Below, in pieces: positions 19,194-39,486 of a stretch of DNA of 64,000 nt. Every line of letters begins with the position of its first letter. Within the stretch, counting starts at the first letter, position 1. Both the position numbers and the translations under genes were made by a program. Under the pieces are notes generated by a model. The model ran no database searches and was not told where the DNA came from. It saw nothing but the letters and a program-made list of their open reading frames with translations. The stretch is taken from positions 124,001-188,000 of the forward strand of contig NZ_LMDM01000045.1 of NCBI RefSeq assembly GCF_001425825.1, read 5' to 3'. This stretch comes from Rhizobacter sp. Root1238. Its GTDB lineage: Bacteria > Pseudomonadota > Gammaproteobacteria > Burkholderiales > Burkholderiaceae_C.

Positions 19194-19206
19194 CACCGTG
19201 CTCCGA

Positions 19207-20907: not shown

Positions 20908-21027
20908 GGCGACCTCGGAGAAACGACGGCGCCCGGGCGGTGCCCGGGCGAGTCCCGATTGTCTGACAAGGCCGCGGCCCTGCGCCGGCCCACCCCCCCA
21001 CTCAGGGTGGCCGCCGCATCCTCCAGG

Positions 21028-24009: not shown

Positions 24010-24031
24010 GGGATGGGGTACGTCCAGGAAA

Positions 24032-27022
24032 TCAGTATTCGTAGGCGCCGACGTCGATGACGCCGTTCATTGGGCGAGCGGTGCCGATGTAGTCGGTCGT
24101 CACCAGCGAGGTCGCGATGCCGGTGTTGATCGCCGGGCTGCCGGTCGACAGCGTCAGCGGCTTGCTGGTCGCGCCGGTCACGGTGGTGCTGGCGTACTTC
24201 GGGTCGACGATGCGGCTGGTGTCGGTGCGGCCGGTCGCGCTCTTGTACTGCGCAGCCCAGGCGGAGGCCGAGACGCTGCTGTCCTTCAGCACGAAGGTCG
24301 GCGCGCCGCCGGTCACCCAGTAGATGTTGCCGTCGATGCGCAGCGTCGTGAAGTCGGTCATCGCGTCGCCGTTCACCTTGATCACCGGCCGGCCTGCCGA
24401 GCCGTAGATGATGTTGTTGTAGATCTCGATGTTGACGCCCGGCGTGCCGATCTCGGATTCGTTGGACACGAAGATCGAGCCTTGCCCGGTGGTCGCGGTG
24501 TTGTAGCAGCTGTTGTTGTAGATGCGCACGTTCGACGACGAGGACGTGGCCACGCAGGCCCAGGTCGCGTTGACGACGACGTTGTTGCGCACGATGCCGT
24601 CGTAGCTCTCGTAGGCGCCGTCGGTCAGGCGGTCGGTGTCGGTCTCCTGGCCGAGCATGATCGCGTGGCCGTTGTCGCTGCGGCCGATGTTATAGAGCAG
24701 GTTGTTCTCGAAGATCACGTTGCGGGCGTTGCCCTTGGCGTACATGCCGAAATCGGGCACGTCGTGCACGTAGTTGCCGGCGACGCGCGGGTTGTTCGCG
24801 CCGACGATGTCGACGCCCTGCGCATTGGTGCCCGGCGTCACCAGCGAGGTGTTCTGGTAGATCTCGTTGTCCAGCACCTCGGTGTCGTTGGCGGTGCGCA
24901 CCAGCTTGACGATGTCGGCGACGCTGCAGCACAGCGTGTTGCCCTGGATGCGCACCTTCGCGGTGTCGATCTTGATCACGTTGCCGTCGTCGCCGCCGCT
25001 GGTGCTGCCGCGCACTTCCAGGCCCTGGATCGTCCACCAGCTGGCGAAGCAGTCGGTGTTGCCGGTGCCGGTGCCGATGGCGTCTTCGTCGCAGGCGCTG
25101 TTGTAGAAGTAGATCGTCGGGCCGGTGCCGGTGCGCTGGATCACCGGGCGCTCGCCGTTGTAGCCGCGCATCGTGATGCGGGCGGTCGACGTGCCGGCGG
25201 TGCGGATCACGACGGCTTCGGAGTAGGTGCCGGCGCGCACCTCGATGATGTCGCCGGCGGTGGCCACGCCGACCGCCTTGGTCAGCGTCTTGAACGGTGC
25301 GGCGAGCGTGCCGGCGGCGCCGTCGCTGCCGGTGGTCGCGACGAACCAGCTCTTGCCGCTGGTGTTGCCGCCACCGCCGCCGGTGCTGGTCGCGGTGAAG
25401 GTGGCGCTGACCGACTTCGCGGCCGTCATCGAGACCGCGCAGGTGCTGCTGCTGCCCGAGCAGGCGCCGCCCCAGGCGGTGAAGGTGTAGCCGCTGGCCG
25501 GCGTGGCCGTCAGCGTGACGCTGGTGCCCGACGCGAAGCTGCTGCAGCCGGTGCCGCAGGCGGTGCCGGCCGGCGAAGCGCCGACACTGCCCGAGCCGGT
25601 GGTTGTCACCGTCAGCGCGACGGTCGGCACCGCGGTGAAGACGGCGGTCGCGCTGCCGGCCGCGTTCATCGTCAGCTGGCAGGTGCTGCTGGTGCCGGTG
25701 CAGGCACCGGTCCAGTTGCTGAAGGTGTAGCCGCTGGCCGGCGTGGCGGTCAGCGTGACGGCGGTGCCGGCATTGAAGCTCGCGCTGCAGGTGCTGCCGC
25801 AGGCGATGCTGCCGCCGGTCGACGCGACGCTGCCGCTGCCTTGCTTGACGACCGTCAGCGTGTAGGTGTTCAGCGCGAACGCGGCGCCGGCCTGGGTCGC
25901 GGCGCCGACCTTCACGGTGCAGGTGCCGCCGCTGGTGGTGACGGTGCCGGTCGACGCGCAGGCGCCGGTCCAGCCGCTGAAGTGCGACGCGCTGCCGCTG
26001 GTGGCGGTCAGCGTGACGCTGGTGCCCGACGCGACGGTGCTGCTGCAGGCGGTCGGGCAGTTGATGCCGGACGGGTTCGAGACCAGCGTGCCCTGGCCGG
26101 TGCCGGTCACGGTGGTGGTCAGCGCGTAGCTGCTGGCCGGCACCACCGCGAAGGCGGCGGCGACCGCGCGCGCGGCCGACATCGTCACCACGCAGGTGTT
26201 GGTGCCCGAGCAGCCGGCGCCGCTCCAGCCGCTGAACGAATAGCCGCTGGCCGGCGTCGCGGTCAGCGTGACGACGGTGTTCTGGTCGTAGCTGTGCGCG
26301 CAGGTGCTGCCGCACGAGATGCCGGCCGGCGACGAGCCGACGGTGCCGGAGCCGGTGACCGTGACGCCGAGCGCATAGGTCGGCGCCGCCACCGCGGTGA
26401 AGCTGACGCTGATGCTGCGCGCCGCGCTCATCGTGACCTGGCAGCTGCTGCCGCTGCAGCTGACGCCGCTGCCGCTCCAGGCGCCGACGGCGTAGCCCGA
26501 GGCCGGCGTCGCCGTCAGCGTGACGACGGTGCCGGCGGCGTAAGTGCCGCCGCAGTCGGTGGCGGTGCTGCACGAGAACGGCGTCGCGTTGGCGGCGACC
26601 GTGCCCGAACCGGCGATCGTCACGCCGAGTGCGTACTCGGGCGCATCGACCGCGCTGAAGGTCGCGACCAGCGACTTCGACTGGTCGAGCATCAGGCTGC
26701 AGTCGGCGGTGCCGGCGCAGTCCACCCCGACGCCGCTCCATCCGACGAACTGGCTGCCCTGGGCGGCCGCGGCATGCAGCGAGACGTTGCTGTTCTTGCT
26801 GTACGACCCGGCGCAGTCGGTGCCGCAATCGATGCCGTTCGGGGTGGAGACCACGCTGCCCTGGCCGATGCGGCTGATCGACAGTGCCGACATCTGCGGC
26901 TCGGGCGAGGCGGCGGTGTCGTCGCCCTTCGAGCCACCGCAGGCCACCAGGGCCGCACCGAGCGCGAACAAGGTCAGATACTTCGTGACACAGGAGAGGG
27001 CGGAGATCGGGGTCGAGGACAT
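24032..27022 (-). CDS. Lipoprotein: 6 InlB-type repeats + parallel beta-helix (cassette 1)
   Basis: A 996-residue lipoprotein. I choose the ATG at 27022 (MSSTPISALSCVTKYLTLFA) because it gives a signal peptide with lipobox LVAC at about residue 24-27; the frame is open 75 nt further up. Residues about 45-545 are six InlB_B-like repeats with paired Cys, followed by a Gly/Asn linker and a right-handed beta-helix of about 440 residues starting at GKSWFVATTGSDGAAGTL and ending NGVIDVGAYEY. The helix part is very close to that of 19207-20907. It is the first gene of the four-gene minus-strand cluster. Likely role: cell-surface binding or processing of a polysaccharide; this is inference. Confidence 0.86.
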   Translation of the reverse strand: MSSTPISALSCVTKYLTLFALGAALVACGGSKGDDTAASPEPQMSALSISRIGQGSVVSTPNGIDCGTDCAGSYSKNSNVSLHAAAAQGSQFVGWSGVGVDCAGTADCSLMLDQSKSLVATFSAVDAPEYALGVTIAGSGTVAANATPFSCSTATDCGGTYAAGTVVTLTATPASGYAVGAWSGSGVSCSGSSCQVTMSAARSISVSFTAVAAPTYALGVTVTGSGTVGSSPAGISCGSTCAHSYDQNTVVTLTATPASGYSFSGWSGAGCSGTNTCVVTMSAARAVAAAFAVVPASSYALTTTVTGTGQGTLVSNPSGINCPTACSSTVASGTSVTLTATSGSASHFSGWTGACASTGTVTTSGGTCTVKVGAATQAGAAFALNTYTLTVVKQGSGSVASTGGSIACGSTCSASFNAGTAVTLTATPASGYTFSNWTGACTGTSSTCQLTMNAAGSATAVFTAVPTVALTVTTTGSGSVGASPAGTACGTGCSSFASGTSVTLTATPASGYTFTAWGGACSGSSSTCAVSMTAAKSVSATFTATSTGGGGGNTSGKSWFVATTGSDGAAGTLAAPFKTLTKAVGVATAGDIIEVRAGTYSEAVVIRTAGTSTARITMRGYNGERPVIQRTGTGPTIYFYNSACDEDAIGTGTGNTDCFASWWTIQGLEVRGSTSGGDDGNVIKIDTAKVRIQGNTLCCSVADIVKLVRTANDTEVLDNEIYQNTSLVTPGTNAQGVDIVGANNPRVAGNYVHDVPDFGMYAKGNARNVIFENNLLYNIGRSDNGHAIMLGQETDTDRLTDGAYESYDGIVRNNVVVNATWACVATSSSSNVRIYNNSCYNTATTGQGSIFVSNESEIGTPGVNIEIYNNIIYGSAGRPVIKVNGDAMTDFTTLRIDGNIYWVTGGAPTFVLKDSSVSASAWAAQYKSATGRTDTSRIVDPKYASTTVTGATSKPLTLSTGSPAINTGIATSLVTTDYIGTARPMNGVIDVGAYEY
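25390..26887 (-). repeat. Six-fold InlB_B-like repeat array in the beta-helix protein
   Basis: Six repeats of about 83 residues that match, position by position, the array of the phosphoesterase gene: repeat 2 has CSTATDC, repeat 4 has GINCPTAC, repeat 5 starts TYTLTV. The array must have been copied as a block between two genes with different catalytic or binding modules. Confidence 0.8.
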
Positions 27023-27696
27023 CGCAGGTTCCAGCTGAGACCACGATCCGACACGGACGGTGGCCGGAGCGGATTGTGTTGGCACCCACTCACGCACCTG
27101 TTTCCAGATGTGGGATAGACAGCTTACAGGTGGCTGTGGCGGGTTTCAGACGGTCGAGCCGGCGCGTGGGCACCTGCTCGCATCGATTCGTGGCGCAGCG
27201 CACACGGTGCATCCATCGGATGTCCGAATGGCTGACATCGCGAGCTCCAACTGTCGGTCGCCTGCAACGCCGGCCGGCCGGCACCTGACTGCGGCAGCCC
27301 GCGGCCACCCCCTCGGTCGCGGGGGCGCTGTTACAAAAACAATCGGAAAAGTCTGCCGGTGTGCGCCGCCTGCCTGGCAGAACTTGCAGCGGTGTGCACG
27401 GGGTGAAGGCCTGCGCCTGGCTTGGGAGATACCTGCGCAAGGGCCTCCGCGCCGCGTGGCCCGACCCCACAACTCAGGGATTGGCGCTGCCAGGGGGTTC
27501 TCGGATCATCCGGTCCATTCAAAAGGGGAGTGTCAGCGAGGTCCGGAATTGATATTGGTATTCAGGGCGGGTTGGCAGTAAACACGTCACTTACGATTCG
27601 TCCTTCATCCGGTCCGGTGCTCTCTTCCATGGCAACGCTGGGCTTTCTCAATACACCGCGGCGAGATTCGCGGCACCACTTTCAAACAAAAGAATC
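27023..27696. other. Long intergenic region between divergent surface-protein and glycan clusters
   Basis: 674 nt without a supported gene. Short frames exist but show no codon bias, start signal or recognisable product. The last 160 nt before tviB are AT-richer and contain TTGGCA at 27570-27575; these are likely to hold the promoter of the plus-strand cluster, but I cannot fix a -10 box. The other side must carry the promoter of the four-gene lipoprotein cluster. Confidence 0.5.
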
Positions 27697-28977
27697 ATGA
27701 CCACCGTTGCTATCGTCGGCCTGGGGTATGTCGGATTGCCTCTGGCAGTTGAATTCGGCAAGAAATACAAGACCATCGGATTTGATTTGTCGGCCGCGAA
27801 AATCGCCGCCTACCGCGAACACATCGATCCGACCGGCGAAGTCAGCACCGAAGCGCTGAAGGCCGCGAGCCAGCTGCACCCGACCACCGACGCCAGCGCG
27901 CTGAAGGATGCCGACTTCATCGTCGTCGCGGTGCCGACGCCGGTGGACGACGCCCACAACCCCGACCTGTCGCCGCTGGTGGGTTCCAGCACCTCGGTCG
28001 GCCGCAACCTGAAGCGCGGCGCGACCATCGTCTTCGAATCCACCGTGTACCCCGGCGCGACCGAAGAGGTCTGCATCCCGATCATCGAGCGCGAATCCGG
28101 CCTCAAGTGGAAGCAGGATTTCTTCGTCGGCTATTCCCCCGAGCGCATCAACCCGGGCGACAAGCAGCACACGCTGACGACCATCACCAAGGTGGTGTCG
28201 GGCGATACCCCGGAGACGCTGAACCTGGTCGCCGAGATGTATGGCAGCGTCATCACCGCCGGCGTCTACAAGGCCACCAGCATCAAGGTGGCCGAGGCCG
28301 CCAAGGTGATCGAGAACACCCAGCGCGACCTGAACATCGCGCTCGTCAACGAGCTCTCGCTGATCTTCCACCGCATCGGCATCGACACGCTCGAGGTGCT
28401 GGAAGCGGCCGGCACGAAGTGGAACTTCCTGCCGTTCCGCCCGGGGCTGGTCGGCGGGCACTGCATCGGCGTCGACCCGTACTACCTGACGCACAAGGCC
28501 GAGCGCCTGGGCTACCACCCGCAGGTCATCCTGGCCGGGCGCCGCATCAACGACGGCATGGCCAAGTACGTCGCCGAGCAGACCATCAAGAACCTGATCC
28601 AGGCCGGCTTCCAGGTGAAGGGCGCCGACGTGATCGTGCTGGGCCTGACCTTCAAGGAAGACTGCCCGGACCTGCGCAACTCGAAGGTGATCGACGTGGT
28701 GCGCGAGCTCGAGAGCTACGGCGTCACGGTGCACGTGCACGACCCGGTGGCCGCGGCCGGCGAGGCGAAGCACGAGTACGGCGTCGACCTGGTCGCCTGG
28801 GACGCGCTGCCGAAGGCGCAGGCCGTGGTGGCCGCCGTCGCGCACAAGGCGCTGAAGGCCCGCCCGATCGACGACTTCGTCGCGAAGCTGGTACCGAACG
28901 GCCTGTATGTCGACGTGAAGAGCCAGGCCGATGCGAAGGCCCTGAAGGCGCGCGGCCTGAACGTCTGGCGCCTGTGA
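27697..28977 (+). CDS. tviB: UDP-N-acetylhexosamine 6-dehydrogenase, TviB/WbpO type
   Basis: A 426-residue nucleotide-sugar dehydrogenase that oxidises C6 of UDP-GlcNAc or UDP-GalNAc to the uronic acid with two NAD+. N-terminal Rossmann motif [10 protein letters not shown] (8-17), central [13 protein letters not shown], and the catalytic C256 in [12 protein letters not shown] are all present. The sequence is of the Vi-antigen TviB/WbpO group ([12 protein letters not shown] near residue 320). The stop overlaps the epimerase start by one base (TGATG), a pair that in Vi polysaccharide synthesis yields UDP-GalNAcA. First gene of the plus-strand carrier-protein cluster. Confidence 0.92.
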
Positions 28978-30035
28978 TGGAAGCCGACGTGACGACCAAC
29001 GAATTCCTCGACCCGGTGCTCGAACAGCTGCGCGCCGCGCCGCGCCGCTGGCTGGTCACCGGCAGTGCCGGCTTCATCGGCTCGCACCTGCTGGAGAACC
29101 TGCTGCGCGCCGGCCAGCAGGTCACGAGCCTCGACAACTTCTCGACCGGCCACCAGGCCAACCTCGACGAGGTGCGCCGCCTCGTCGGCGAAGAGGCCTG
29201 GTCGCGCCACACCTTCATCCGTGGCGACATCGCCGATTTGGCGAGCTGCACGCAGGCCTGCGACGGCGCCGAGATCGTGCTGCACCAGGCCGCGCTCGGC
29301 TCGGTGCCGCGCTCGATCAAGGACCCGCTGACCACGCACCGCTCGAACGCGACCGGCTTCCTGACGATGCTCGAAGCCGCGCGCACCGCCGGCGTCAAGC
29401 GCTTCGTCTATGCCGCATCGAGCTCGACGTATGGCGATTCGCCGACGCTGCCGAAGGTCGAGGACACGATCGGCCGGCCGCTGTCGCCGTACGCGGTGAC
29501 CAAGTACCTGAACGAGCTGTATGCCGAGGTGTTCGGCCGCTGCTACGGGTTGTCGACGATCGGGCTGCGCTACTTCAACGTGTTCGGCCCCCGCCAGGAC
29601 CCGAACGGCGCCTATGCCGCGGTGATTCCGCGCTGGGCGGCCGAGATGCTCGACGGCTCGCGCTGCGTGATCAACGGCGACGGCGAGACCTCGCGCGACT
29701 TCTGCTTCGTGACCAACGCGGTGCAGGCCAACCTGCGCGCCGGCCTGTGCGCCGATCCGGAGGCGTCGAACCAGGTCTTCAACGTGGCGGTCGGCGACCG
29801 CACCACGCTGAACCAGTTGCACGGCGCGATCGCCGAGGCGCTGCAGCGCGAATGCCCGCAGCTGCGCGTCGAGCCGCCGCAGTACGCCGCGTTCCGCGCC
29901 GGCGACGTGCGCCATTCGCTGGCCGACGTGTCGAAGGCGCGCCGGCTGCTCGGCTACCAACCCAGCCACGACGTGCGCGCCGGGCTGCTCGAGGCGATCG
30001 GCTGGTACGTGCAGCGTGCCCGCCAGACCGCCTGA
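28977..30035 (+). CDS. tviC: UDP-GlcNAc(A) 4-epimerase, TviC/WbpP type
   Basis: A 352-residue extended SDR epimerase. NAD-binding [14 protein letters not shown] at about 28-41 after a 22-residue N-terminal extension typical of WbpP/TviC, Ser-rich SSSTYGD, and the catalytic pair Y172 and K176 in YAVTKY. It interconverts UDP-GlcNAc/UDP-GalNAc or their uronates. ATG at 28977 shares a base with the tviB stop; the frame is open upstream inside tviB but that part is not protein-like. The next gene starts 68 nt later. Confidence 0.92.
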
Positions 30036-30103
30036 TCATTTTCTCGACGCTGCGAGGCACCGGCCGCGCGGCAGAAACTTCCCTTGAAACGCAGGACATC
30101 GAC

Positions 30104-30346
30104 ATGCACACCGACAAGATCCGTTCCGTCATCGCCAAGCACGCCCGCCTGTCGGTGGACGCCGCCACGCTGACCGAAGACAGCGACCTGTACGCCGCCG
30201 GGCTGACCTCGCTGACGACGGTCAACCTGATGCTGGCGCTGGAGGACGAATTCGACATCGAGTTCTCCGACAAGATGCTCGGCCGCAAGACCTTCGAGAG
30301 CATCCGCTCGCTGTCCGAAGCCATCGAAGAACTCGTCAGCGCCTGA
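30104..30346 (+). CDS. Acyl/aminoacyl carrier protein
   Basis: An 80-residue carrier protein with four helices and the phosphopantetheine site S36 in AAGLTSLTTVNL; the following LEDEFDIEFSDKML is the normal helix II-III region. The motif is GLTSL rather than the GADSL of fatty-acid AcpP, so it is a dedicated carrier. The closely linked class II synthetase-like ligase (32205-33125) belongs to a family whose partners are such small stand-alone carriers, so the most likely load is an amino acid. ATG at 30104 is 68 nt after tviC; the acyl-CoA dehydrogenase-like gene follows after 32 nt. Confidence 0.92.
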   Translation: MHTDKIRSVIAKHARLSVDAATLTEDSDLYAAGLTSLTTVNLMLALEDEFDIEFSDKMLGRKTFESIRSLSEAIEELVSA

Positions 30347-30378
30347 AGCGCTGCACTGCCGCCTTTCCTGGAGACACC

Positions 30379-31554
30379 ATGTCGCAACCGACCCGCCTCA
30401 GCCCCCAACTGCCCGCACTGCTCGAAGGGCTGCACGGCATCGGCCGCGACATCATCGCGCCGCACGCCGCCGAGGTCGACCGCGACGCGCGCTTCCCGCA
30501 CGAGGCCTACGCGGCGCTGCGCCAGCAGAAGCTGCTGAGCTGCTACGTGCCGGTCGAGTACGGCGGCATGGGGCTGAACATCAGCGACCTGTCGCAGATC
30601 TGCGAGGTGCTGGGCCAGTACTGCGGCTCGACCGCGATGATCTTCGCGATGCACCAGATCCAGGTCGGCTGCATCGTGCACCACGCGCTGGAATCCGAAT
30701 TCTTCCAGGCCTATGCCCGCGAGATGGTCGAGAAGCAGACGCTGATCGCATCGGCCACCACCGAGCTGGGCATCGGCGGCGACGTGCGCTCCAGCCTGTG
30801 CGCGGTGCAGGTGAACGGCGACCGATTCACGCTGGAGAAGCAGACGCCGGTGATCTCGTACGGCGCGACGGCCGATGCCATCCTGGTGACCTGCCGCAAG
30901 TCGGAGGACGCGGCACGCAACGACCAGGTGCAGGTGCTGGTGCGCAAGGGCGACTACGAACTGACCAAGCTCTCGGGCTGGGACACGCTGGGCTTCCGCG
31001 GCACCTGCAGCGAAGGCTTCGTGCTGAAGTCGCAGGGCCGCGTCGAGCAGATCCTGCCGCAGCCGTATGCCGACATCCACCGCCGCACGATGCACCCGTT
31101 CTCGCACGTCGTGTGGGCCTCGCTGTGGCTGGGCCTGTCGATCGACGCGGTGAGCCGCGCGCGCAGCGCGGTGCGGGCCGAAGCGCGCAAGAACCCGAGC
31201 GTGACGCCGATCTCGGCGACGCGCCTGGCGGAGCTCGACACGGTGCTGTTCTCGATGCGCGGCGGCGTGTACCAGACGCTGCGCGAGTACCACGACGTGC
31301 TGATCGCCAACGATCCCGAGGCCTACTCCGGCTTCAGCTTCGCGATCAACATCAACAACCTGAAGCTGACGGCCTCGCAGTTCGTCGTCGAGGTGGTCGG
31401 CAAGGCGATGCTGATCTGCGGCATCCAGGGCTACCGCAACGACTCGAAGCTGACGCTGGGCCGCCACCTGCGCGACGCGTACGGCGCGGCGCTGATGGTC
31501 AACAACGACCGCATCCTCGGCCAGAGCGCCACGATGCAGATCGTTCAGCGCTGA
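30379..31554 (+). CDS. Acyl-CoA dehydrogenase-like flavoprotein, probably acting on carrier-bound substrate
   Basis: A 391-residue member of the acyl-CoA dehydrogenase fold: N-terminal helical domain (1-125), beta domain with IASATTELGIGGDVRSS (about 125-240), C-terminal helical domain with ICGIQGYRNDSKLTLGRHLRDAYG. The usual catalytic Glu in the C-terminal YEGT loop is absent (VNNDRILGQ is found in that place), so the base lies elsewhere or the reaction differs. Flavoproteins of this fold oxidise aminoacyl groups on carrier proteins, as PltE does with prolyl-PCP. Its position between a carrier protein and a carrier-protein ligase supports that kind of role. Strong GGAGA site before the ATG. 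Confidence 0.85.
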   Translation: MSQPTRLSPQLPALLEGLHGIGRDIIAPHAAEVDRDARFPHEAYAALRQQKLLSCYVPVEYGGMGLNISDLSQICEVLGQYCGSTAMIFAMHQIQVGCIVHHALESEFFQAYAREMVEKQTLIASATTELGIGGDVRSSLCAVQVNGDRFTLEKQTPVISYGATADAILVTCRKSEDAARNDQVQVLVRKGDYELTKLSGWDTLGFRGTCSEGFVLKSQGRVEQILPQPYADIHRRTMHPFSHVVWASLWLGLSIDAVSRARSAVRAEARKNPSVTPISATRLAELDTVLFSMRGGVYQTLREYHDVLIANDPEAYSGFSFAININNLKLTASQFVVEVVGKAMLICGIQGYRNDSKLTLGRHLRDAYGAALMVNNDRILGQSATMQIVQR

Positions 31555-31605
31555 TTGAGACTGAGCGGGATGAAGGTCTTTGTCTTCTCCGGTTGGCGCG
31601 GCAAA

Positions 31606-31848
31606 GGCGCGGGTGGGGAGGCTGTGGCGCGCCGTCGGGTGCGGTCCTCGGCCCCTGGGGGCCGAGGACTGCCCTCCGCTGACTGGCTTCATGGCCCGTC
31701 GCCGAAACTCCCTCCACTCACTTCGTTCGTTGTGGTCAAACAGTCGGCGACAGTCAGTTCACGAAGCACGCTGCGCGTGCGGGCCATGAAGCCAGCCAGC
31801 TCCGGCGCCCCCTCCTTATTGGCGCGCCACAGCCTCCCCACCCGCGCC
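31606..31848. repeat. Palindromic intergenic repeat, family 2, copy C
   Basis: A 243-bp nested palindrome. Outer arms 31606-31633 and 31821-31848 pair perfectly over 28 bp; inner arms 31684-31698 and 31780-31794 over 15 bp; an innermost 8-bp stem (31698-31705 with 31744-31751) closes a 38-nt loop. The loop matches copy D in reverse orientation with two differences. The 650-nt gap 31555-32204 contains this copy, copy D and a 68-nt linker and no supported gene. Confidence 0.88.
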
Positions 31849-31916
31849 GTTGCAGAGACAGTGGCTCACTTCGACGAACACAAGGCCTTTCCGCCTTTCC
31901 GCAAACACAAGCCGCT

Positions 31917-32164
31917 CGCAGGTTGCGGCTGGGGGGCTGGGCTGGGGGCGATTTCTGGGGCGACGAGAAGGGCAGTGCTTGCGGGTGGCGTGCGCAGCAC
32001 GCATCGTGGACTGACTCATCGCCACTGTTTGACCACAGCGAACGAAGTGAGCGGAGGGAGTTTGGCGATGCACCCGCACGCGCAGCCCTTCTCGTGGAGT
32101 CGGCCCGCCAGGGCCGACCGCCCCGGCATGAGCCGCCAGCCCAGCCCCCCGGCCGCAACCTGCG
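31917..32164. repeat. Palindromic intergenic repeat, family 2, copy D (inverted)
   Basis: A 248-bp nested palindrome. Outer arms 31917-31945 and 32136-32164 pair over 29 bp with one mismatch; inner arms 31963-31973 and 32085-32095 pair over 11 bp; an innermost 8-bp stem (32017-32024 with 32063-32070) closes the conserved loop. The stems differ in sequence from copy C yet pair equally well. It ends 40 nt before the next gene. Confidence 0.86.
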
Positions 32165-32204
32165 CGCATAAAAACTGACAGCGATTCTTTCAAGGACTCC
32201 CGCC

Positions 32205-33125
32205 ATGTGCACCCAACACGACGACCCCTACAAGCAGTACCAGGCCGAGCTGATCGAGGCCGGCCTGCTGATCCCTTCGGGCGTGCGCGGCGTCTACGGC
32301 CGCAGCGGCACCTTCGAGAACATCATCGACCAGTTCGAAGGCCTGGTGACGCGTGAAGGCGCGTTCCAGAACGCCGAGGTGATGCGCTTCCCGCCGATCT
32401 TTCCGCGCGCCAACTACGCGCGCATCGACCACATCAACAACTTTCCCGACCTGATGGGCTCGGTGCACAGCTTCCTCGGCGGCGAGAAAGAGCACCAGGC
32501 CATGCTCGGCAAGTTCGAGGCCAAGGAAGACTGGACCAGCTCGCTGTCGCCCGCCGAAGTGATGCTGGTGCCCGCCGCCTGCTACCCGCTGTACCCGACC
32601 GCCACCGGCACGCTGTCGGCGCAGGGCCGCGTCGTCGACCTGAAGACCTTCGTGTTCCGCCACGAGCCGTCGGACGATCCGGCGCGCATGCAGATCTTCC
32701 GCCAGCGCGAGTTCGTGCGCCTCGGCACCCCCGACCAGGCGCTGAACCACCGCAACGACTGGCTGGCGCGCGGCCAGGCCATCCTCGAGTCAGTGGGCCT
32801 GCCGGTGAAGAAGGTGCTGGCCGACGACCCGTTCTTCGGCCGCGGCGCGCGCATCATGAAGGCGACGCAGCGCGAGCAGGACCTGAAGTACGAACTGGTG
32901 GTGCCGATCTGCAAGGAAGACAAGCCGACCGCGATCACCTCGTGCAACTACCACCTCGACCACTTCGGCATCTCGTTCGACATCCTGCAGGCCGACGGCA
33001 CGCCGGCGCACACCGCCTGCATCGGCTTCGGGCTCGAACGCATCGCGCTCGCGCTGCTGAAGACGCACGGCTTCGACCCGAAGCGCTGGCCGCACGAGGT
33101 GCGCCAGCAACTGGCCATGGTCTGA
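32205..33125 (+). CDS. Amino acid:[carrier protein] ligase (class II aaRS-like)
   Basis: A 306-residue truncated homologue of atypical seryl-tRNA synthetase that lacks a tRNA-binding arm. Class II motif 2 is FRQREFVRLG (165-174) and motif 3 is GFGLERIALAL (274-284). The zinc ligands of the family can be seen as C126, E169 and C272. Characterised relatives in Bradyrhizobium and Agrobacterium activate Gly or Ala with ATP and transfer it to the phosphopantetheine of a small carrier protein, not to tRNA. Here a carrier protein lies 1.9 kb upstream in the same direction. The amino acid used cannot be read from the sequence. Next gene starts 10 nt after the stop. Confidence 0.9.
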   Translation: MCTQHDDPYKQYQAELIEAGLLIPSGVRGVYGRSGTFENIIDQFEGLVTREGAFQNAEVMRFPPIFPRANYARIDHINNFPDLMGSVHSFLGGEKEHQAMLGKFEAKEDWTSSLSPAEVMLVPAACYPLYPTATGTLSAQGRVVDLKTFVFRHEPSDDPARMQIFRQREFVRLGTPDQALNHRNDWLARGQAILESVGLPVKKVLADDPFFGRGARIMKATQREQDLKYELVVPICKEDKPTAITSCNYHLDHFGISFDILQADGTPAHTACIGFGLERIALALLKTHGFDPKRWPHEVRQQLAMV

Positions 33126-33135
33126 CGAGGGCCGC

Positions 33136-34107
33136 ATGAAACGTGTCCTGCCGATCGAGCCGGCGAGCTTCCAGCGCCACCCGATCCACACCGAGCCGCG
33201 CACCTGGGCCGAGACCAACTGCTACGCCGACGTGCTGATCGAGCTGCTGCACGGCCTCGGCCACGACCCGGTGCCGGCGCTCGCGTTCACGCTCGGCGTC
33301 GACTTCGAAGGCGACCAGTGGACCTTCTTCAAGTTCCCCGATGGCGACCTGTACGACCTGTACGGCGTCGACATCCAGGAGCTCGCGGTGTGGCGGCCGC
33401 TGGTCGACCACATCGAGGACCAGGTCGGGCAGGGCCGTCCGGTGCTGGTCGAACTCGACTCGTGGTTCCTGCCGGACACCGCCGGGTCCGCGTACAAGCT
33501 CGCGCACACGAAATCGACGGTCGGCGTCAATGCGATCGACGTGAAGGCACGTCGCATGGACTACTTCCACAACCAGGGCTTCTACGCACTGGAAGGCGAT
33601 GACTTCCGCGACGTGTTCCAGCTCGACGGGCTGGTGCACGAGCGCATGCTGCCGCCGTACATCGAGTTCCTGAAGACCCGGCCCGGCTTCACGCCGCCGA
33701 CCGGCGCGGCGCTGGTCGACGGCTCGCTCGCGCTGCTGCGCAAGCACCTGACGCGCGTGCCGGCGACCAACCCGTTCACGCGCTTCAAGACGCAGTTCGC
33801 GAAGGACCTCGACTGGCTGATGCAGTCCGACATCGCGGTCTTCCACACCTATTCGTTCGCGACGCTGCGCCAGTACGGCGCGTGCTTCGAGCTCGCGGAA
33901 ACCTACCTGCGCTGGCTGGGGTCGCAAGGCGTCGATGTCGTCGCTTCGGCCGATGCGTTCGCGCAGATCTCGCAGACCGCGAAGGCGTTCCAGTTCCAGT
34001 TGGCGCGATCGATGGCCCGCAAGAAGCCGCTCGACCTGTCGCCGATCGATGCGATGGGCGAGGCCTGGTCGTCGGGCATCGCCGAGCTGCGACGCCGACA
34101 CGGGTGA
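33136..34107 (+). CDS. DUF1839 protein, papain-like fold suspected
   Basis: A 323-residue cytosolic protein that I place in DUF1839. The N-terminal third has a Cys in ETNCYADVLIELLHGLG (C29), and VELDSWFLPDTAGSAYKLAHTKSTVGVNAIDV gives a His (H124) and an Asp (D135). This Cys...His...Asp layout is that of C39/papain-like proteins and of the acyltransferase BtrH, which moves an aminoacyl chain from a carrier protein to an aminoglycoside. I infer that it may transfer the carrier-bound product of the flanking enzymes. The C-terminal half is helical with no known motif. It overlaps the following GH2 frame region, so the genes are coupled. Confidence 0.75.
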   Translation: MKRVLPIEPASFQRHPIHTEPRTWAETNCYADVLIELLHGLGHDPVPALAFTLGVDFEGDQWTFFKFPDGDLYDLYGVDIQELAVWRPLVDHIEDQVGQGRPVLVELDSWFLPDTAGSAYKLAHTKSTVGVNAIDVKARRMDYFHNQGFYALEGDDFRDVFQLDGLVHERMLPPYIEFLKTRPGFTPPTGAALVDGSLALLRKHLTRVPATNPFTRFKTQFAKDLDWLMQSDIAVFHTYSFATLRQYGACFELAETYLRWLGSQGVDVVASADAFAQISQTAKAFQFQLARSMARKKPLDLSPIDAMGEAWSSGIAELRRRHG

Positions 34108-34118
34108 CGCACGCGGCC

Positions 34119-36563
34119 ATGAACGCGGCGATCGCGCTGGACAGCGGCTGGGAGATCGCCGCAGGTGCGTCCGATGAGCTGGCCTGGGCACCGGTGCGCG
34201 AGCTCGGCACCGTCGGCGCGAGCCTCGGCGTCGGGCTTGACACGCCGCATGGACGCTACGACACGCAGGACTGGTGGTACCGCTGCCGTTTCCCGGCGCC
34301 GGCATCGCACGGTGCTGATCGCCAGCACCTGCGCTTCGACGGCCTGGCCGGCATCGCCGAGGTCTGGCTGAACGACGAGCCGATCCTCACTGCGCGCAAC
34401 ATGTTCACCACCGAGCGGGTCGACGTGACCGGCCGGCTGCGGCCCGACAACGAGTTGCGCCTCTGCTTCCGCTCGCTCGACGCCGAACTCGCCACCCGCA
34501 AGCCGCGCCCGCGTTGGAAGACCGCGCTCGTCGAGGCACAGAACCTGCGCTGGGTGCGCACCACGCTGCTCGGCCGCATCCCCGGCTGGACGCCGCCGGT
34601 CCACCCGGTCGGCGTGTGGAAACCGGTGTGGCTCGAGACGGTGTCGCCGGGCGGCATCGCGTCGATCGACCTGCAGTGCGATGCCGAGGCCGGCGTCGGC
34701 CGCGTGCGGCTGCGCGCCACGCTGACCGCCGGCAGCGACGTCGCCGAGGCGCGCCTGCGCATCGGCGACCGCACCCATGCGCTCGCGCTCGACGGCGACA
34801 CGCTGTCGGCCGACCTGCAACTGCCCGCTGTCGCGCTGTGGTGGCCGCACACGCACGGCGCGCCGGCGCTGCACGACTGCGCGATCGAACTGCGCCAGGG
34901 CACGCAGTGGACCGCGATCGACCGCGGCCGCATCGGCTTCCGCCAGGTCGAGGTGCGGCGCGACGACGGCCTGGTGCAGTTCCGTGTCAACGGCACGCCG
35001 GTGTTCTGCCGCGGCGCCTGCTGGACCACCGACGACTTCCTGCGTCTGCACGGCGACCCGCAGCAGTTGCGCCGCACGCTGACGCTCGCGCGCGACGGCG
35101 GCCTGAACATGCTGCGCATCGGCGGCACGATGACCTACGAGTCGGACGCGTTCTACGCGCTGTGCGACGAACTGGGCATCCTGGTCTGGCAGGACTTCAT
35201 GTTCGCCAACATGGACTACCCGGTGGCCGACGAGGCCTTCCGCGCCGAGATCGAGCGCGAGGCTGACCAGCAGCTCCACCGCCTGCAGGCGCACCCGTGC
35301 ATCGCCGCGTACTGCGGCGGCAGCGAGGTCGAGCAGCAGGCCGCGATGCTGGGCCTGCCGGCCGAGCAGTGGAGCAACGATTTCTTCAGCGAGACGCTGC
35401 CGGCGCGTTGCGCGAGCCGCCATGCCGGCGTGCCGTACTTCCGCTCGTCGCCGTGCGAAGGCGCGTTGCCGTTCCACGTCGGCACCGGCATCTCGCACTA
35501 CTACGGCGTTGGCGCCTACCGCCGGCCGATCAGCGACGTGAAGCACGCCGGCGTCAAGTTCACGACCGAATGCCTGGGCTTCTCGCACGTGCCCGAGCCC
35601 GAGACCATCGAGCTGCTGGCCGGCCAGCCGACGATCGCGCCGCACCACCCGCTGTGGAAGCAGCGCCAGCCGCGCGACAACGGCGCCGGCTGGGACTTCG
35701 AGGACATCCGCGACCACTACCTGCGCGAGCTCACCGGGCTCGATCCGGTCGCGCTGCGCAGCACCGACATCGCACGCTACCTCGCGCTGTCGCGCGCAGT
35801 GACCGGCGAGGTGCTGAAGCGCGTGTTCGCCGAATGGCGCGCACCGGGCAGCGTCTGCGGCGGCGGCCTGGTGTGGTTCCTGAAGGACCTGTGGCCGGGC
35901 GCCGGCTGGGGCCTGATCGACAGCACCGGCCGGCCGAAGGCGGTGTACTGGGCGCTGAAGCGCGCGTGGGCAGCACGCACCGTGCTGATCACCGACGGCG
36001 GGCTCGACGGTCTGCAGCTGCAGGTGCACAACGAGGGCGGCGAGCCGCTCGCGGGCAGCGTCGAGATCGCGCTGTACCAGGATGGGCAGGTGCGCACCGC
36101 CGGCGGCAGCCTCGACGTGATCCTGGCGGCGAACCAGGGCCTCGCGCTGCAGGCCGATGCGCTGATCGGCCACTTCGCCGACACCGCCTACGCCTACCGC
36201 TTCGGGCCGCCGCAGCACGACGTGGCGGTCGCGCGCTTGAAGAACGAAGCGGGCGACACGTTGGCCGAGGATTTTCATTTTCCGCACGGGTTGAACCTGC
36301 CGCCGCAGCGCGCCGGCACGCTGACGGCGCAGGCGCAGCGGCAGGCCGACGGCAGCGTGCTGGTCACGCTGGAGGCGGCCGCGTTGATCCAGTCGCTTCA
36401 CGTCGAATGCGCCGGCTACGCGGCCGACGACCTGCATTTCCACCTGGCGCCGCAGTCGCGCCGCACGCTGCGCTTCAGGCCGCTCGATGCCGCGCCGCGC
36501 AAGTTCAAGGCGCACCTCGGCGCGCTGAACCTGCGGGAACTGGTGACCGTCCGTGCGGACTGA
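34119..36563 (+). CDS. Glycoside hydrolase family 2-like enzyme (beta-mannosidase-like)
   Basis: About 814 residues with the GH2 plan: jelly-roll sugar-binding domain (1-180, WWYRCRF, LRFDGLAGIAEVWLNDEPI), Ig-like domain, then a TIM barrel from about 290 (NGTPVFCRGACWTTDDF, GGLNMLRIGGTMTYESD). The acid/base Glu is probably E403 in CGGSEVEQ, where GNNE is usual, and the nucleophile E484 in FTTECLGFS. There is no signal peptide, so it acts in the cytosol, which is unusual for a polysaccharide hydrolase. ATG at 34119 or a GTG at 34104 overlapping the previous stop by 4 bp can be the start. It overlaps the next gene by 11 bp. Confidence 0.83.
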   Translation: MNAAIALDSGWEIAAGASDELAWAPVRELGTVGASLGVGLDTPHGRYDTQDWWYRCRFPAPASHGADRQHLRFDGLAGIAEVWLNDEPILTARNMFTTERVDVTGRLRPDNELRLCFRSLDAELATRKPRPRWKTALVEAQNLRWVRTTLLGRIPGWTPPVHPVGVWKPVWLETVSPGGIASIDLQCDAEAGVGRVRLRATLTAGSDVAEARLRIGDRTHALALDGDTLSADLQLPAVALWWPHTHGAPALHDCAIELRQGTQWTAIDRGRIGFRQVEVRRDDGLVQFRVNGTPVFCRGACWTTDDFLRLHGDPQQLRRTLTLARDGGLNMLRIGGTMTYESDAFYALCDELGILVWQDFMFANMDYPVADEAFRAEIEREADQQLHRLQAHPCIAAYCGGSEVEQQAAMLGLPAEQWSNDFFSETLPARCASRHAGVPYFRSSPCEGALPFHVGTGISHYYGVGAYRRPISDVKHAGVKFTTECLGFSHVPEPETIELLAGQPTIAPHHPLWKQRQPRDNGAGWDFEDIRDHYLRELTGLDPVALRSTDIARYLALSRAVTGEVLKRVFAEWRAPGSVCGGGLVWFLKDLWPGAGWGLIDSTGRPKAVYWALKRAWAARTVLITDGGLDGLQLQVHNEGGEPLAGSVEIALYQDGQVRTAGGSLDVILAANQGLALQADALIGHFADTAYAYRFGPPQHDVAVARLKNEAGDTLAEDFHFPHGLNLPPQRAGTLTAQAQRQADGSVLVTLEAAALIQSLHVECAGYAADDLHFHLAPQSRRTLRFRPLDAAPRKFKAHLGALNLRELVTVRAD

Positions 36564-38370
36564 CGACATCCCGCTGCCGCCGGAGGCCGCGCGCCGCCCC
36601 GAGGTCCGGCGCGAGCCGCTGATGCTCGGCAGCGATGCGCAGCCGCTGTTCGGCTGGTACCACGTGGCCGATGCGGTGCCGCGCCGCGATGCGGTCGTCG
36701 TGATCTGCAACCCGATGGGCTACGAGTACGCGCACGGGCACCGCTCGCTGCGCCACCTGGCCGACGACCTCGCGCGCTCGGGCGTGCCGGCGCTGCGCTT
36801 CGACTACCACGGCAGCGGCGATTCGCCGGGCCTGGAGACCGACGCCGGCCGGCTGCAGCGCTGGCAGGACGACGTCCACACGGCGATCGCCGCGGCGCAG
36901 GCGCTGAGCGGCAGCGCGCGCGTCGGGCTGCTCGGCGTGCGGCTCGGTGCGACGCTCGCGGCGCTGGTCGCGGCGCAGCGCGAGGTCGACTGGCTGGTGC
37001 TGTGGAACGTCTGCGCCTCGGGCCGCCGCCATGTGCGCGAGCTGCAGGCGCTGGACATGGCGGCCGGCGGCGGCCAGCGGCCGGTCAGCGCGCCGTTGGA
37101 GCCGGCGGGTTTCCTGGTGAGCCGCGAGACGCAGGACGCCGTGAAGGCGGTGCAGCTGACGCGCGAGGCGCTGCGCGTCAGCGGCCGCGCGCTGCTGGTC
37201 GCACGCGACGACCTGATCGGCGAGGAAGAGGCGCTGGGCGAGCACCTGCTGACGCTCGGCATCGCGACCGATGCGATCGCCTGCGCCGGCTATGCCGACA
37301 TGATGGCCGAGCCGGTGCACACCGTGGTGCCGCGCCAGGCGCTCGACAGCATCGTGCAGTGGATGGTCGCGCAGACCGCGCTGCGCGAGGCCGCGCCGCC
37401 GCTGCTGCCGTCGCCGGTCGGGGCGACGCAGGCGCGCTTCGCGCATGCGACCGCCGATGGCCGCGCGGTCGCGCTGACCGAGACGCTGTGCGCGCTCGGC
37501 AACGAGGGGCAGCTGTTCGGGCTGCTCGCGCAGGCCGATGGCGTCGACCTGGCTGCGCGGCCGATGGTCGTGCTCTTCAATTCGGGCACCGTGCACCACG
37601 TCGGCCCGAACCGGCTGTACGTGACGCTCGCGCGCGAGTTCGCGGCGCTCGGCTTCCCGACCGTGCGTTGCGACCTCGAAGGGTTGGGCGACAGTGTGCA
37701 GCGGGGGACCGGGCGGGAGAACCACCCGTATCCCGACAGCGCGGTGCCCGATGCGCAGCAGGTGCTGCACAGCCTGCGCGAGCGCTTCGGCGTGCGCGAG
37801 TTCGTGCTGATGGGCTTGTGCTCCGGCGCGTACACCGCGTTCCAGACCGGGCTGGTCGAGCAGGCGGCGCAGATCAGCGAGCTGGTGCTGATCAACCCGC
37901 TGACCTGGCGCTGGGTCGAAGGGGATGCCGTCGACACGAAGCATTTCTCGGCAGTGGCGCACTACAAGGGCACGATGCGCCGGCTCGACAGCTGGAAGAA
38001 GCTGCTGCGCGGGCAGGTGAACCTGGTCTACCTCGGCGGCGTGGTGTTCTCGCACCTGCGCAAGCAGGTGGCGTCGCGCGTGAGTGCGATCAACGAGATC
38101 TTCTTCCCGTCGCGCGGGCCGTTGCTGTCACGGCAGTTGCGGCAGTTGTTCGCGGCGAAGCGTCACGTGACCCTGATCGTGTCGTCGGGCGATCCGGGTT
38201 GGGACATGCTGCAGGACGGCGCGCGCCAGACCGCTCAGCGCGCAATCAAGAACCGCGAGCTCGCGCTGGAGTTCGTCGACGACGCCGACCACACGTTCTC
38301 GCGCGAGGCGGCGCGGCAGCGGGTGGTGGCGGCGATCGGGCGGCGGTTGCTGAAGCGGTTTGGCGGCTGA
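36553..38370 (+). CDS. Tandem alpha/beta-hydrolase protein
   Basis: A 605-residue protein of two alpha/beta-hydrolase units. Unit 1 (about 15-275) has the oxyanion-type CNPMGYEY and DYHGSGDS blocks, but its nucleophile elbow reads GVRLGA, with Arg in place of Ser. Unit 2 (about 290-605) has NSGTVHHVG, DLEGLGDS and an elbow GLCSGAY, which puts Cys in the nucleophile position, and DDADHTFSR supplies the His. The arrangement recalls the exosortase-associated hydrolase 1 and 2 pairs of exopolysaccharide loci, here fused. Likely an acyl or thioester hydrolase/transferase. GTG start at 36553 overlaps the GH2 gene by 11 bp; it is the last gene of the cluster. Confidence 0.8.
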   Translation: MRTDDIPLPPEAARRPEVRREPLMLGSDAQPLFGWYHVADAVPRRDAVVVICNPMGYEYAHGHRSLRHLADDLARSGVPALRFDYHGSGDSPGLETDAGRLQRWQDDVHTAIAAAQALSGSARVGLLGVRLGATLAALVAAQREVDWLVLWNVCASGRRHVRELQALDMAAGGGQRPVSAPLEPAGFLVSRETQDAVKAVQLTREALRVSGRALLVARDDLIGEEEALGEHLLTLGIATDAIACAGYADMMAEPVHTVVPRQALDSIVQWMVAQTALREAAPPLLPSPVGATQARFAHATADGRAVALTETLCALGNEGQLFGLLAQADGVDLAARPMVVLFNSGTVHHVGPNRLYVTLAREFAALGFPTVRCDLEGLGDSVQRGTGRENHPYPDSAVPDAQQVLHSLRERFGVREFVLMGLCSGAYTAFQTGLVEQAAQISELVLINPLTWRWVEGDAVDTKHFSAVAHYKGTMRRLDSWKKLLRGQVNLVYLGGVVFSHLRKQVASRVSAINEIFFPSRGPLLSRQLRQLFAAKRHVTLIVSSGDPGWDMLQDGARQTAQRAIKNRELALEFVDDADHTFSREAARQRVVAAIGRRLLKRFGG

Positions 38371-38388: not shown

Positions 38389-39486
38389 TCACTCATTCTT
38401 CTGCTTCGACTTGAAGAGCTGTGCAGCGACTTTTCTAGGGCTTCTCAACGGCTTGCTCGATTTCGGATTCTCATCCGATTCAAAGTCGATTTTGAAATTG
38501 GCCCATTTGACGCAAAATTTTTCATTGAGTTTGGGGTCGCGTTTCCATCGATCGGTGTTGTGTGCGTCACATTTTTCAAGATGCTCACGGAGCATTTGCT
38601 GCGCACGCATGAATTCTCTGCCATTGGGCTTGGAGTTTGATTTGACGGCGTCCCACAATTCCTGTGCCAGATCGACGTCTACCAGCAGCAGCCAACTGAT
38701 AAGGGTCAGAACCTTGTTGTGCAAATCGGAATTTTCAGTGCGGGCCATCTGTTTTAAAACGACTTCGTTGATGGTGAACGCGCACGCACTCACGTCAACG
38801 ATGTCCAGGAGGCCGGCAGCAGCCCGCAGCGCTTTGTGAAGTTCCGGTTCAGCAGCATTCTGCTTCATCTTCGCATACCGCCGCGCCGCAATTTGACTGA
38901 GCGAACTGATGTGTTCAGGACGCAGATTGCCGCCGTGCGTTTGCTGCTGCTTCAATTTCCCTTGAAGCTGCATCACCGCTTTCTCAAGCTCGCCGATCAT
39001 CAAGTTTGCGCAATGGCGAGTAGGCGCCTCTGCTTTGGCCGCTGCCCTCAGGATCACATTCATCGTCTGATCATCCCCTCGTCCTGCGGCTAGCGCATAA
39101 CGTTCCATCAGATCCTTCCATTTCCTCTGCCATTTCCCTTCTTCTGCTGCTGCTTGCTTTTCTTTTCTCAGTTCAGCCAATGCCAAGTGATCGCCGCCCG
39201 CTTTGAATATTTCTTTTTCAAATTTCTTCGTGGATCCCGGGGATATCTGGTCATTTAAGAGTAAGTTATAGCGCGCTACTTTGTCGACCACTCGACGTGG
39301 TAGTTCGTATAATGGGCCGTTCTTTGCGCAGTCGCCTTTAACGAGCGTGCGGAAGACAAGGAAATAAGCACTGAGTTGGTTCTTGGTTATTTCCTGGCGC
39401 AACAAAGGTATTTTAGGGATGGCGGGAGGCCGGCGCATCAATTTCGAGTTGCGATCGATCTTGGGCGCATCATTTTTTTTTAGCAT
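38389..39486 (-). CDS. Hypothetical lysine-rich helical protein
   Basis: I do not recognise this 365-residue protein. It has no signal peptide or membrane segment, is rich in Lys, Ala and Leu, and seems almost all alpha-helical, with probable coiled coil at about 105-130 (LRKEKQAAAEEGKWQRKW) and 165-190. The N-terminus (MLKKNDAPKIDRNSKLMRRPP) and C-terminus (KVAAQLFKSKQKN) are very basic, which would suit nucleic-acid binding. GC content and codon use are clearly lower than in neighbours, so it was probably acquired recently. It lies in opposite direction to the carrier-protein cluster, with an 18-nt gap. Confidence 0.7.
   Translation of the reverse strand: MLKKNDAPKIDRNSKLMRRPPAIPKIPLLRQEITKNQLSAYFLVFRTLVKGDCAKNGPLYELPRRVVDKVARYNLLLNDQISPGSTKKFEKEIFKAGGDHLALAELRKEKQAAAEEGKWQRKWKDLMERYALAAGRGDDQTMNVILRAAAKAEAPTRHCANLMIGELEKAVMQLQGKLKQQQTHGGNLRPEHISSLSQIAARRYAKMKQNAAEPELHKALRAAAGLLDIVDVSACAFTINEVVLKQMARTENSDLHNKVLTLISWLLLVDVDLAQELWDAVKSNSKPNGREFMRAQQMLREHLEKCDAHNTDRWKRDPKLNEKFCVKWANFKIDFESDENPKSSKPLRSPRKVAAQLFKSKQKNE

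What the first reader, a model, noticed from the sequence alone, without database searches (positions are those of the whole stretch)
27697..38370. Aminoacyl-carrier-protein pathway embedded in a nucleotide-sugar cluster
In one direction lie: UDP-HexNAc dehydrogenase, epimerase, stand-alone carrier protein (S36), acyl-CoA-dehydrogenase-like flavoprotein, class II synthetase-like ligase with Cys126/Glu169/Cys272 and no tRNA arm, DUF1839, GH2-like enzyme and a double alpha/beta hydrolase. Established: ligases of this family load Gly or Ala on small carrier proteins, and flavoproteins of the ACAD fold oxidise carrier-bound amino acids (PltE). Inference: the cluster builds an oxidised or modified aminoacyl group on the carrier and passes it to an amino-uronic sugar or glycan. 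The product and the physiological role of such ligases are, as far as I know, undescribed.
Basis: partly seen in the sequence, partly recalled or inferred. Interest (0 to 1): 0.82.

Follow-up and report, generated by a model that had tools for sequence, protein, structure and literature searches.

The report
Amino-acid loading and transfer gene cassette
Six neighbouring genes, kept in the same order in many different bacteria, look like a small assembly line that loads an amino acid onto a carrier protein, oxidises it and hands it on, most likely to a surface sugar polymer used in biofilms.

The parts
27697..28977 (+). TviB-like UDP-HexNAc 6-dehydrogenase; local neighbour, not part of the conserved cassette
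   Evidence: a homologue in the held flanks of 1 of 80 relatives (L012)
28977..30035 (+). TviC-like NAD-dependent epimerase; local neighbour
   Evidence: hits in 2 of 80 loci (L012, L015)
30104..30346 (+). stand-alone aminoacyl carrier protein (80 aa); Ser36 codon at 30209-30211
   Evidence: NF005480 over cut-off; nearest solved chains are the aminoacyl carrier protein 4h2w_C and 2jq4_A (Atu2571); Ser36 in 86 of 86
30379..31554 (+). ACAD-fold flavoprotein, proposed oxidase or monooxygenase of the carrier-bound aminoacyl group
   Evidence: model pLDDT 92.9; His92, Ser160, Trp201, His243 in 90 of 90; V/I (88 of 90) and S/A/T (89 of 90) at the two known base positions
31560..32180 (.). dispersed non-coding repeat inserted between the ACAD and ligase genes
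   Evidence: inverted repeats; 225 match rows in the own genome; the ACAD-ligase gap is at most 126 bp in the 55 collinear relatives
32205..33125 (+). amino-acid:[carrier-protein] ligase, seryl-tRNA-synthetase-like class II core, 306 aa
   Evidence: NF005479 443.5 bits; 4h2w/3mey; Cys126/Glu169/Cys272 invariant in 10 of 10 and 81 of 81
33136..34107 (+). DUF1839, proposed carrier-dependent aminoacyltransferase (Cys29, Thr128, His145)
34119..36563 (+). GH2 protein of beta-mannosidase type, 814 aa from the chosen ATG (start uncertain), no obvious signal peptide by eye
   Evidence: Glu403 72 of 74, Glu484 74 of 74, Ser402 in place of the usual Asn in 72 of 74
36553..38370 (+). fused double alpha/beta hydrolase (hydr2_PEP-like then hydr1_PEP-like); N half without a nucleophile at the elbow, C half with Cys423
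   Evidence: GxRxG with R in 48 of 56, GxCxG with C in 54 of 56; within 300 bp downstream of GH2 in 30 of 41 collinear relatives that have it, 27 of them on the same strand

Best explanation
A laterally mobile aminoacyl-transfer cassette attached to polysaccharide (often exopolysaccharide) loci. Step 1: a phosphopantetheinyl transferase arms Ser36 of the carrier protein (a PPTase gene lies in the relatives of the own family; none was sought elsewhere in this genome). Step 2: the tRNA-synthetase-like ligase activates a small amino acid (glycine is the first guess from the solved relatives) with ATP and loads it on the carrier. Step 3: the ACAD-fold flavoprotein oxidises the carrier-bound aminoacyl group; mono-oxygenation at N or C-alpha is slightly preferred over desaturation. 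Step 4: DUF1839 takes the group onto Cys29 and passes it to an acceptor, as CcbD does; the precedents use an amine, so a sugar amine is the first guess, but a hydroxyl is not excluded. Step 5: the GH2 and the Cys-type hydrolase trim or proof-read a glycan-linked intermediate. Tested here: gene identity, linkage, co-variation, fold and conservation of candidate active-site residues. Inferred: every chemical step, the amino acid, the acceptor, and the role of GH2 and the hydrolase.
Confidence: 0.62

Rival explanations
1. Small-molecule pathway: the cassette makes a soluble aminoacylated sugar (lincosamide-like metabolite, signal or cofactor), and its place beside polysaccharide loci reflects co-regulation rather than a polymer substituent.
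For: The nearest solved relatives of DUF1839 (CcbD, CtaG, AziU3) come from natural-product pathways (pathways of CtaG and AziU3 recalled). Bep shows no such substituent. 18 of 39 dereplicated loci lack the seeded polysaccharide genes. Of the ten recurrent flank clusters that I annotated, one is an ABC-transporter ATPase, in 7 loci.
Against: The most frequent Pfam families among 130 flank proteins are glycosyltransferases (7), initiating sugar transferases (5), acyltransferases (4) and flippases (4), small counts but ahead of other kinds. In Burkholderia the cassette lies inside the bec/bep region, and insertions there give pellicle-deficient mutants.
Confidence: 0.2
2. Ester decoration: DUF1839 moves the aminoacyl group to a sugar hydroxyl, giving a base-labile aminoacyl ester on the exopolysaccharide, comparable in effect to Dlt D-alanylation.
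For: The Bep repeat and the sugars measured for Bec are neutral hexoses and rhamnose. Bep was extracted in NaOH, which would remove esters. The reported exchange in the active site (PMC10318531) could go with a different acceptor.
Against: The solved relatives by fold act on amines as far as known to me (CcbD; CtaG and AziU3 recalled). No direct evidence of an ester.
Confidence: 0.25
3. The flavoprotein is a true dehydrogenase that desaturates a carrier-bound amino acid (PltE/RedW/ColB1-like).
Against: No acidic residue at the MCAD-type position (V/I in 88 of 90 rows) or the IVD-type position (S/A/T in 89 of 90) by sequence alignment (the positions are recalled). Trp201 and Ser160 align with the same residues of the nitrososynthase DnmZ, where the dehydrogenase 9w60 has others. 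Glycine cannot be alpha,beta-desaturated.
Confidence: 0.35

Closest known systems
Solved amino-acid:[carrier-protein] ligase and its aminoacyl carrier protein (3mey, 4h2w; Mocibob and others 2010 and 2013, papers recalled and seen only as cited in PMC9437257)
   Same: Same ligase and carrier families over curated cut-offs, same Cys/Glu/Cys residues
   Different: A 2022 review says the biological role of the loaded carrier remains unknown (PMC9437257); here the whole cassette and its distribution are described
Predicted StRS pathway of the 2010 note added in proof (PMC2922099, passages seen)
   Same: Same neighbourhood: ligase, ACP, redox enzyme, uncharacterised protein, glycosidase, liposaccharide genes; same proposal of transfer to a surface sugar
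   Different: There the transferase was an uncharacterised ORF (Atu2574, which I take to be DUF1839 without having looked it up); here DUF1839 is matched to CcbD/CtaG/AziU3, and order, phyla, PPTase, hydrolase and biofilm link are added
Lincosamide condensing enzymes CcbD/LmbD (PMC12945683 and PMC4351081, passages)
   Same: Whole-length fold of CcbD, conserved Cys near the N terminus, carrier-dependent; substrate logic amino acid plus sugar
   Different: 12% identity; active site reported as Cys-Thr-His in place of Cys-His-Glu; cassette often beside polysaccharide loci. In 2015 LmbD/CcbD were reported to have no known homologues
BtrJ/BtrI/BtrH of butirosin; Dlt and AlmEFG systems (recalled; BtrH also in PMC10318531)
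   Same: Ligase, carrier protein and transferase that put an acyl or aminoacyl group on a sugar or envelope polymer
   Different: Different ligase fold, and no ACAD or GH2 in those systems as far as I recall
Exosortase-A-associated hydrolases 1 and 2 (TIGR03100, TIGR03101)
   Same: The two halves of the last protein match these models; BCAM1334 of the Bep cluster is annotated TIGR03100
   Different: Scores are below the models' cut-offs (137 against 168; 89 against 203); halves fused; no exosortase in the window, two elsewhere in the genome

Membership tests
Amino-acid:[carrier-protein] ligase (NF005479) | score over the curated cut-off | tested here: met
   443.5 bits against 357
Amino-acid:[carrier-protein] ligase (NF005479) | Zn-binding Cys/Glu/Cys and no tRNA-binding domain | tested here: met
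   Cys126/Glu169/Cys272 invariant in 10 of 10 and 81 of 81; 306 aa, class II core only; zinc role recalled
Amino-acid:[carrier-protein] ligase (NF005479) | loads an amino acid on the carrier, not on tRNA | not testable with these tools
   needs purified protein
Aminoacyl carrier protein (NF005480) | score over cut-off and phosphopantetheine serine | tested here: met
   108.2 against 72; Ser36 in 86 of 86
Carrier-dependent amide synthase of the CcbD/LmbD/CtaG kind | whole-chain papain-like plus helical fold | tested here: met
Carrier-dependent amide synthase of the CcbD/LmbD/CtaG kind | Cys-His-Glu/Asp triad | tested here: inconclusive
   Cys29 86, Thr128 86 and His145 87 of 87; His reported to have changed places with Thr/Ser (PMC10318531), and the spacing Thr128-His145 resembles His128-Asp144 of CtaG (entry titles); no residue-level superposition was available
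Carrier-dependent amide synthase of the CcbD/LmbD/CtaG kind | forms an amide from a carrier-bound acyl group and an amine | not testable with these tools
   needs an assay
Acyl-CoA dehydrogenase (ACAD) enzyme | ACAD fold | tested here: met
Acyl-CoA dehydrogenase (ACAD) enzyme | catalytic Glu at the MCAD-type or IVD-type position | tested here: not met
   V/I in 88 and S/A/T in 89 of 90 rows by sequence alignment; positions recalled for MCAD/IVD; structure-based residue pairs were not available
Group D flavin monooxygenase of the ACAD fold (DnmZ, KijD3, DszC) | flavin-dependent mono-oxygenation, active-site His/Ser/Trp | tested here: inconclusive
GH2 beta-mannosidase | two catalytic Glu and the preceding Asn (NE) | tested here: not met
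   Glu403 (72 of 74) and Glu484 (74 of 74) kept, but Ser402 stands for Asn in 72 of 74
TviB/TviC (Vi antigen enzymes) | score over equivalog cut-off | tested here: not met
   502.6 against 592; 431.5 against 760
Exosortase-A-associated hydrolase 1/2 | score over cut-off | tested here: not met
   137.1 against 168.45; 89.3 against 202.75

The most novel reading that the evidence does not exclude
The cassette makes a so far unknown polysaccharide substituent: an oxidised glycyl group (N-hydroxyglycyl, or an iminoacetyl/glyoxylyl equivalent that can cross-link the matrix), built on a carrier by a tRNA-synthetase-derived ligase and an ACAD-fold oxygenase and transferred by a DUF1839 acyltransferase with an exchanged Cys-Thr-His site. 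It would be a portable biofilm-matrix modification system shared between phyla.
Probability: 0.15. Interest if true: 0.85.

Novelty: new variant of a known kind. Interest (0 to 1): 0.62.

Why it matters
Amino-acid:carrier-protein ligases have solved structures, yet a 2022 review still calls their biological role unknown (PMC9437257). If this reading holds, they feed a widespread, horizontally moving system that decorates surface polysaccharides, and the DUF1839 family is the missing transferase. It also gives the lincosamide enzymes CcbD/LmbD, reported in 2015 as without homologues, a large bacterial family of fold relatives. A concrete product would explain why a synthetase-like gene sits inside biofilm loci and would make a new polymer substituent directly testable.

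Tried and rejected
PltE-type dehydrogenation as the leading reading: kept as a rival only, because both acidic base positions are empty by sequence. The ACAD fold search did not decide it: dehydrogenases and monooxygenases lie within about 3 Z units.

UDP-amino-uronic acid as the specific acceptor: a TviB relative is held with 1 of 80 cassettes, so this was dropped as the general reading and kept only as possible in this genome.

Sequence search of DUF1839, alone and as a 55-row profile, against solved chains found nothing at E up to 10; only the fold showed the relatives. A BtrH structure did not appear in the fold rows; that is inconclusive.

No exosortase or Bac_transf sugar transferase lies in the window; the genome has them on other contigs, so the 'exosortase hydrolase' name of the last gene was not followed further. 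Neighbours of variant ligase loci (L100-L102: methionine-salvage genes, MetA/PLP enzymes, Wzz, GntR, DctP) gave no common theme.

Paper searches: one search was rejected for its wording; some searches were answered (9 of 10 allowed). The statement that I found no functional study of the cassette as such rests; the library holds open-licence papers only, and the 2010 PNAS paper was not held. Papers seen: passages of PMC10318531, PMC3584217, PMC5552954, PMC7084887, PMC9684580, PMC9437257, PMC2922099, PMC12945683, PMC4351081 and PMC9040570; for PMC5507470 section 16 whole plus passages of other sections; all others only as search listings.

Selection limits. 18 of the 80 were left out of the order count for short flanks. 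The 130 flank proteins come from 40 chosen loci, 120-700 aa each, with my own gene calls. Of 57 clusters of flank and cassette genes I annotated ten. The models used to count polysaccharide genes were trained on the case loci, which favours cases over controls; the 40 control segments come from 7 genomes. The dereplication (39 of 59 loci of at least 18 kb) merged Azospirillum, Bosea and Burkholderia/Paraburkholderia by hand. Of the nine other ligase-bearing family genomes, eight were fetched with wide flanks (L105-L112); G016 was not.
Full report
What is there. The window (64 kb, GC about 0.68) lies in a 6.5-Mb genome (G000, contig C45). Between 27697 and 38370, all on the + strand, are eight genes: a TviB-like dehydrogenase (27697-28977), a TviC-like epimerase (28977-30035), a carrier protein (30104-30346), an ACAD-fold flavoprotein (30379-31554), a seryl-tRNA-synthetase-like ligase (32205-33125), DUF1839 (33136-34107), a GH2 protein (34119-36563, start uncertain) and a fused double hydrolase (36553-38370).

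How conserved. In 62 of these the flanks suffice to judge (at least 3 kb left, 6.5 kb right). The carrier is present in 60, the ACAD in 59, DUF1839 in 58, GH2 in 56 and the hydrolase in 42. All five core genes are present in 56 and collinear on one strand in 55; six loci lack at least one (L036, L039, L046, L048, L049, L083). Record titles and tree labels name Pseudomonadota, Planctomycetota, Acidobacteriota, Myxococcota, Chloroflexota, Gemmatimonadota and Abditibacteriota, many of them metagenome bins whose labels I did not verify. By whole genomes: in 398 genomes of the phylum 16 have DUF1839 and 28 the ligase over its cut-off (44 at E up to 0.001); all 16 have both, side by side, and 12 have the ligase alone. 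In 150 genomes of the family 13 have DUF1839 and 10 the ligase; all 10 ligase genomes also have a DUF1839 match (one, G016, a weak fragment with a stop), and three have DUF1839 without the ligase (G012, G058, G139). Distances of all six families are correlated (r 0.62 to 0.91 for 15 pairs; 0 of 200 permutations reach any of them).

Horizontal origin. The window ligase is 47-50% identical to nine others of its own family but 73-74% to L012 and 71-72% to L013. In the tree it falls in a 35-row clade (100/100) without the eight own-family loci, which form another clade (100/100) together with L091. Those eight are also arranged differently: ACAD-ligase-DUF1839 on one strand and carrier-GH2 (with the hydrolase in six) on the other in seven of eight; the short contig L109 shows the carrier divergent and no GH2. 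All eight have a PPTase gene, in L105 directly before the carrier gene. One further family member, L097, has the window's collinear order but no ligase. So the window ligase looks imported, and the co-variation suggests that the cassette moves largely as a unit.

GH2 and hydrolase. The GH2 is closest to beta-mannosidases (5n6u, 9e-52). Both catalytic Glu are kept, but the usual Asn before the acid/base is Ser in 72 of 74, so the substrate may differ. L013 has a GH99-like gene beside it (weak, 31.2 bits against a cut-off of 33). The hydrolase has no nucleophile at the elbow of its N half (GxRxG in 48 of 56) and a Cys there in its C half (54 of 56), which would suit acyl transfer or thioester proof-reading; that is inference.

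Polysaccharide link. Among 130 flank proteins of 40 loci the commonest Pfam families are group-1/4 glycosyltransferases (7), initiating sugar transferases (5), sigma-54 activators (4, three with a VpsR domain), acyltransferases (4) and flippases (4 and 3); M20 peptidases and zinc alcohol dehydrogenases follow with 3 each, so the counts are small. With models for five polysaccharide families, 36 of 59 loci of at least 18 kb carry at least one (21 of 39 after dereplication) against 5 of 40 control segments (Fisher p about 1e-4; models trained on the cases, controls from 7 genomes). In L104 a second DUF1839 lies beside ManC and a Wzc-type kinase. In 11 of 11 Burkholderia/Paraburkholderia loci re-examined, an initiating sugar transferase and one or two CRP-type regulators lie on one side of the cassette and a VpsR/sigma-54 regulator on the other. 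By family and position the outer regulators correspond to BerA (BCAM1349) and BerB (BCAM1342) of the Bep exopolysaccharide system, whose genes are BCAM1330-1341 (PMC3584217 and PMC9684580 passages). In the bec cluster described by PMC5507470, becE (cyclic-nucleotide-binding) and becL (sigma-54) enclose six genes, of which the second, becG, is annotated acyl-CoA dehydrogenase. The six genes between the corresponding regulators in L071/L072 are carrier, ACAD, ligase, DUF1839, GH2, hydrolase, so I read becF-becK as these six. That paper found pellicle-deficient insertions in its primary screen in all 18 bec genes but becF (in the library, not found), becM and becO (not in the library). The becG mutant was followed up: smooth colonies, reduced biofilm (table value 0.84, against 0.43-0.66 for the other bec mutants listed; the legend gives at least 40% decrease for all 37 mutants). 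The assignment of single genes other than becG is mine and positional. That organism is a listed agent: I only read the paper and propose no test in it.

Against. The Bep repeat has no amino sugar (PMC7084887); the first-choice acceptor (a sugar amine) is therefore unsupported where the best genetics exists, and an ester lost in the NaOH extraction, or a non-polymer product, stays open. The becF result, the ligase-free cassette L097, the 12 genomes with ligase but no DUF1839, and the loci L100-L102 do not fit a simple obligatory pathway.

What is known and what is new. The 2010 note added in proof of PMC2922099 already gives the neighbourhood and the idea of ligation to a surface sugar amine by the uncharacterised ORF, with mono-oxygenation by the redox enzyme. 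A 2022 review says that the biological role of the loaded carriers remains unknown (PMC9437257). So the finding's inference is not new. New here, as far as the searches named under Tried and rejected show: the CcbD/CtaG/AziU3 relation, the cross-phylum order and co-variation counts, the PPTase gene in the own-family loci, the double-hydrolase anatomy, and the connection to the bec/bep biofilm loci.

Noticed in passing
window 31560-32180: A roughly 620-bp non-coding element with long imperfect inverted repeats separates the ACAD and ligase genes; its parts give 225 match rows in the own genome, so it is a dispersed repeat family.
   Followed up: partly
window 17994-27097, - strand: Four large adjacent proteins with InlB-type repeats, beta-helix or calcineurin-like phosphoesterase domains just upstream of the cassette.
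   Followed up: partly
window 38389-39486, - strand: A 365-residue frame with no Pfam match in the lowest-GC 2-kb step of the window (0.58), directly behind the cassette.
   Followed up: no
window 47566-51702, - strand: Large protein with fibronectin type III domains.
   Followed up: no
L097 (G012): Cassette with carrier, ACAD, DUF1839, GH2 and hydrolase in order but no ligase, and no ligase match in that genome.
   Followed up: partly
L100, L101, L102: ACAD and ligase (with a weak carrier match in two) without DUF1839 or GH2; neighbours include methionine-salvage-type genes (L100) and homoserine succinyltransferase plus a Cys/Met PLP enzyme (L101).
   Followed up: partly
L103, L104: A second, longer DUF1839 on the opposite strand, in L104 beside ManC and a Wzc-type kinase; L103 looks alike by frame order only.
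   Followed up: partly
L098, L099: Divergent DUF1839 relatives without ligase, carrier, ACAD or GH2 in the fetched 20 kb.
   Followed up: no
L015, L042: Metagenome bins titled Klebsiella pneumoniae carry the cassette next to environmental relatives in the ligase tree; the label is probably wrong.
   Followed up: no
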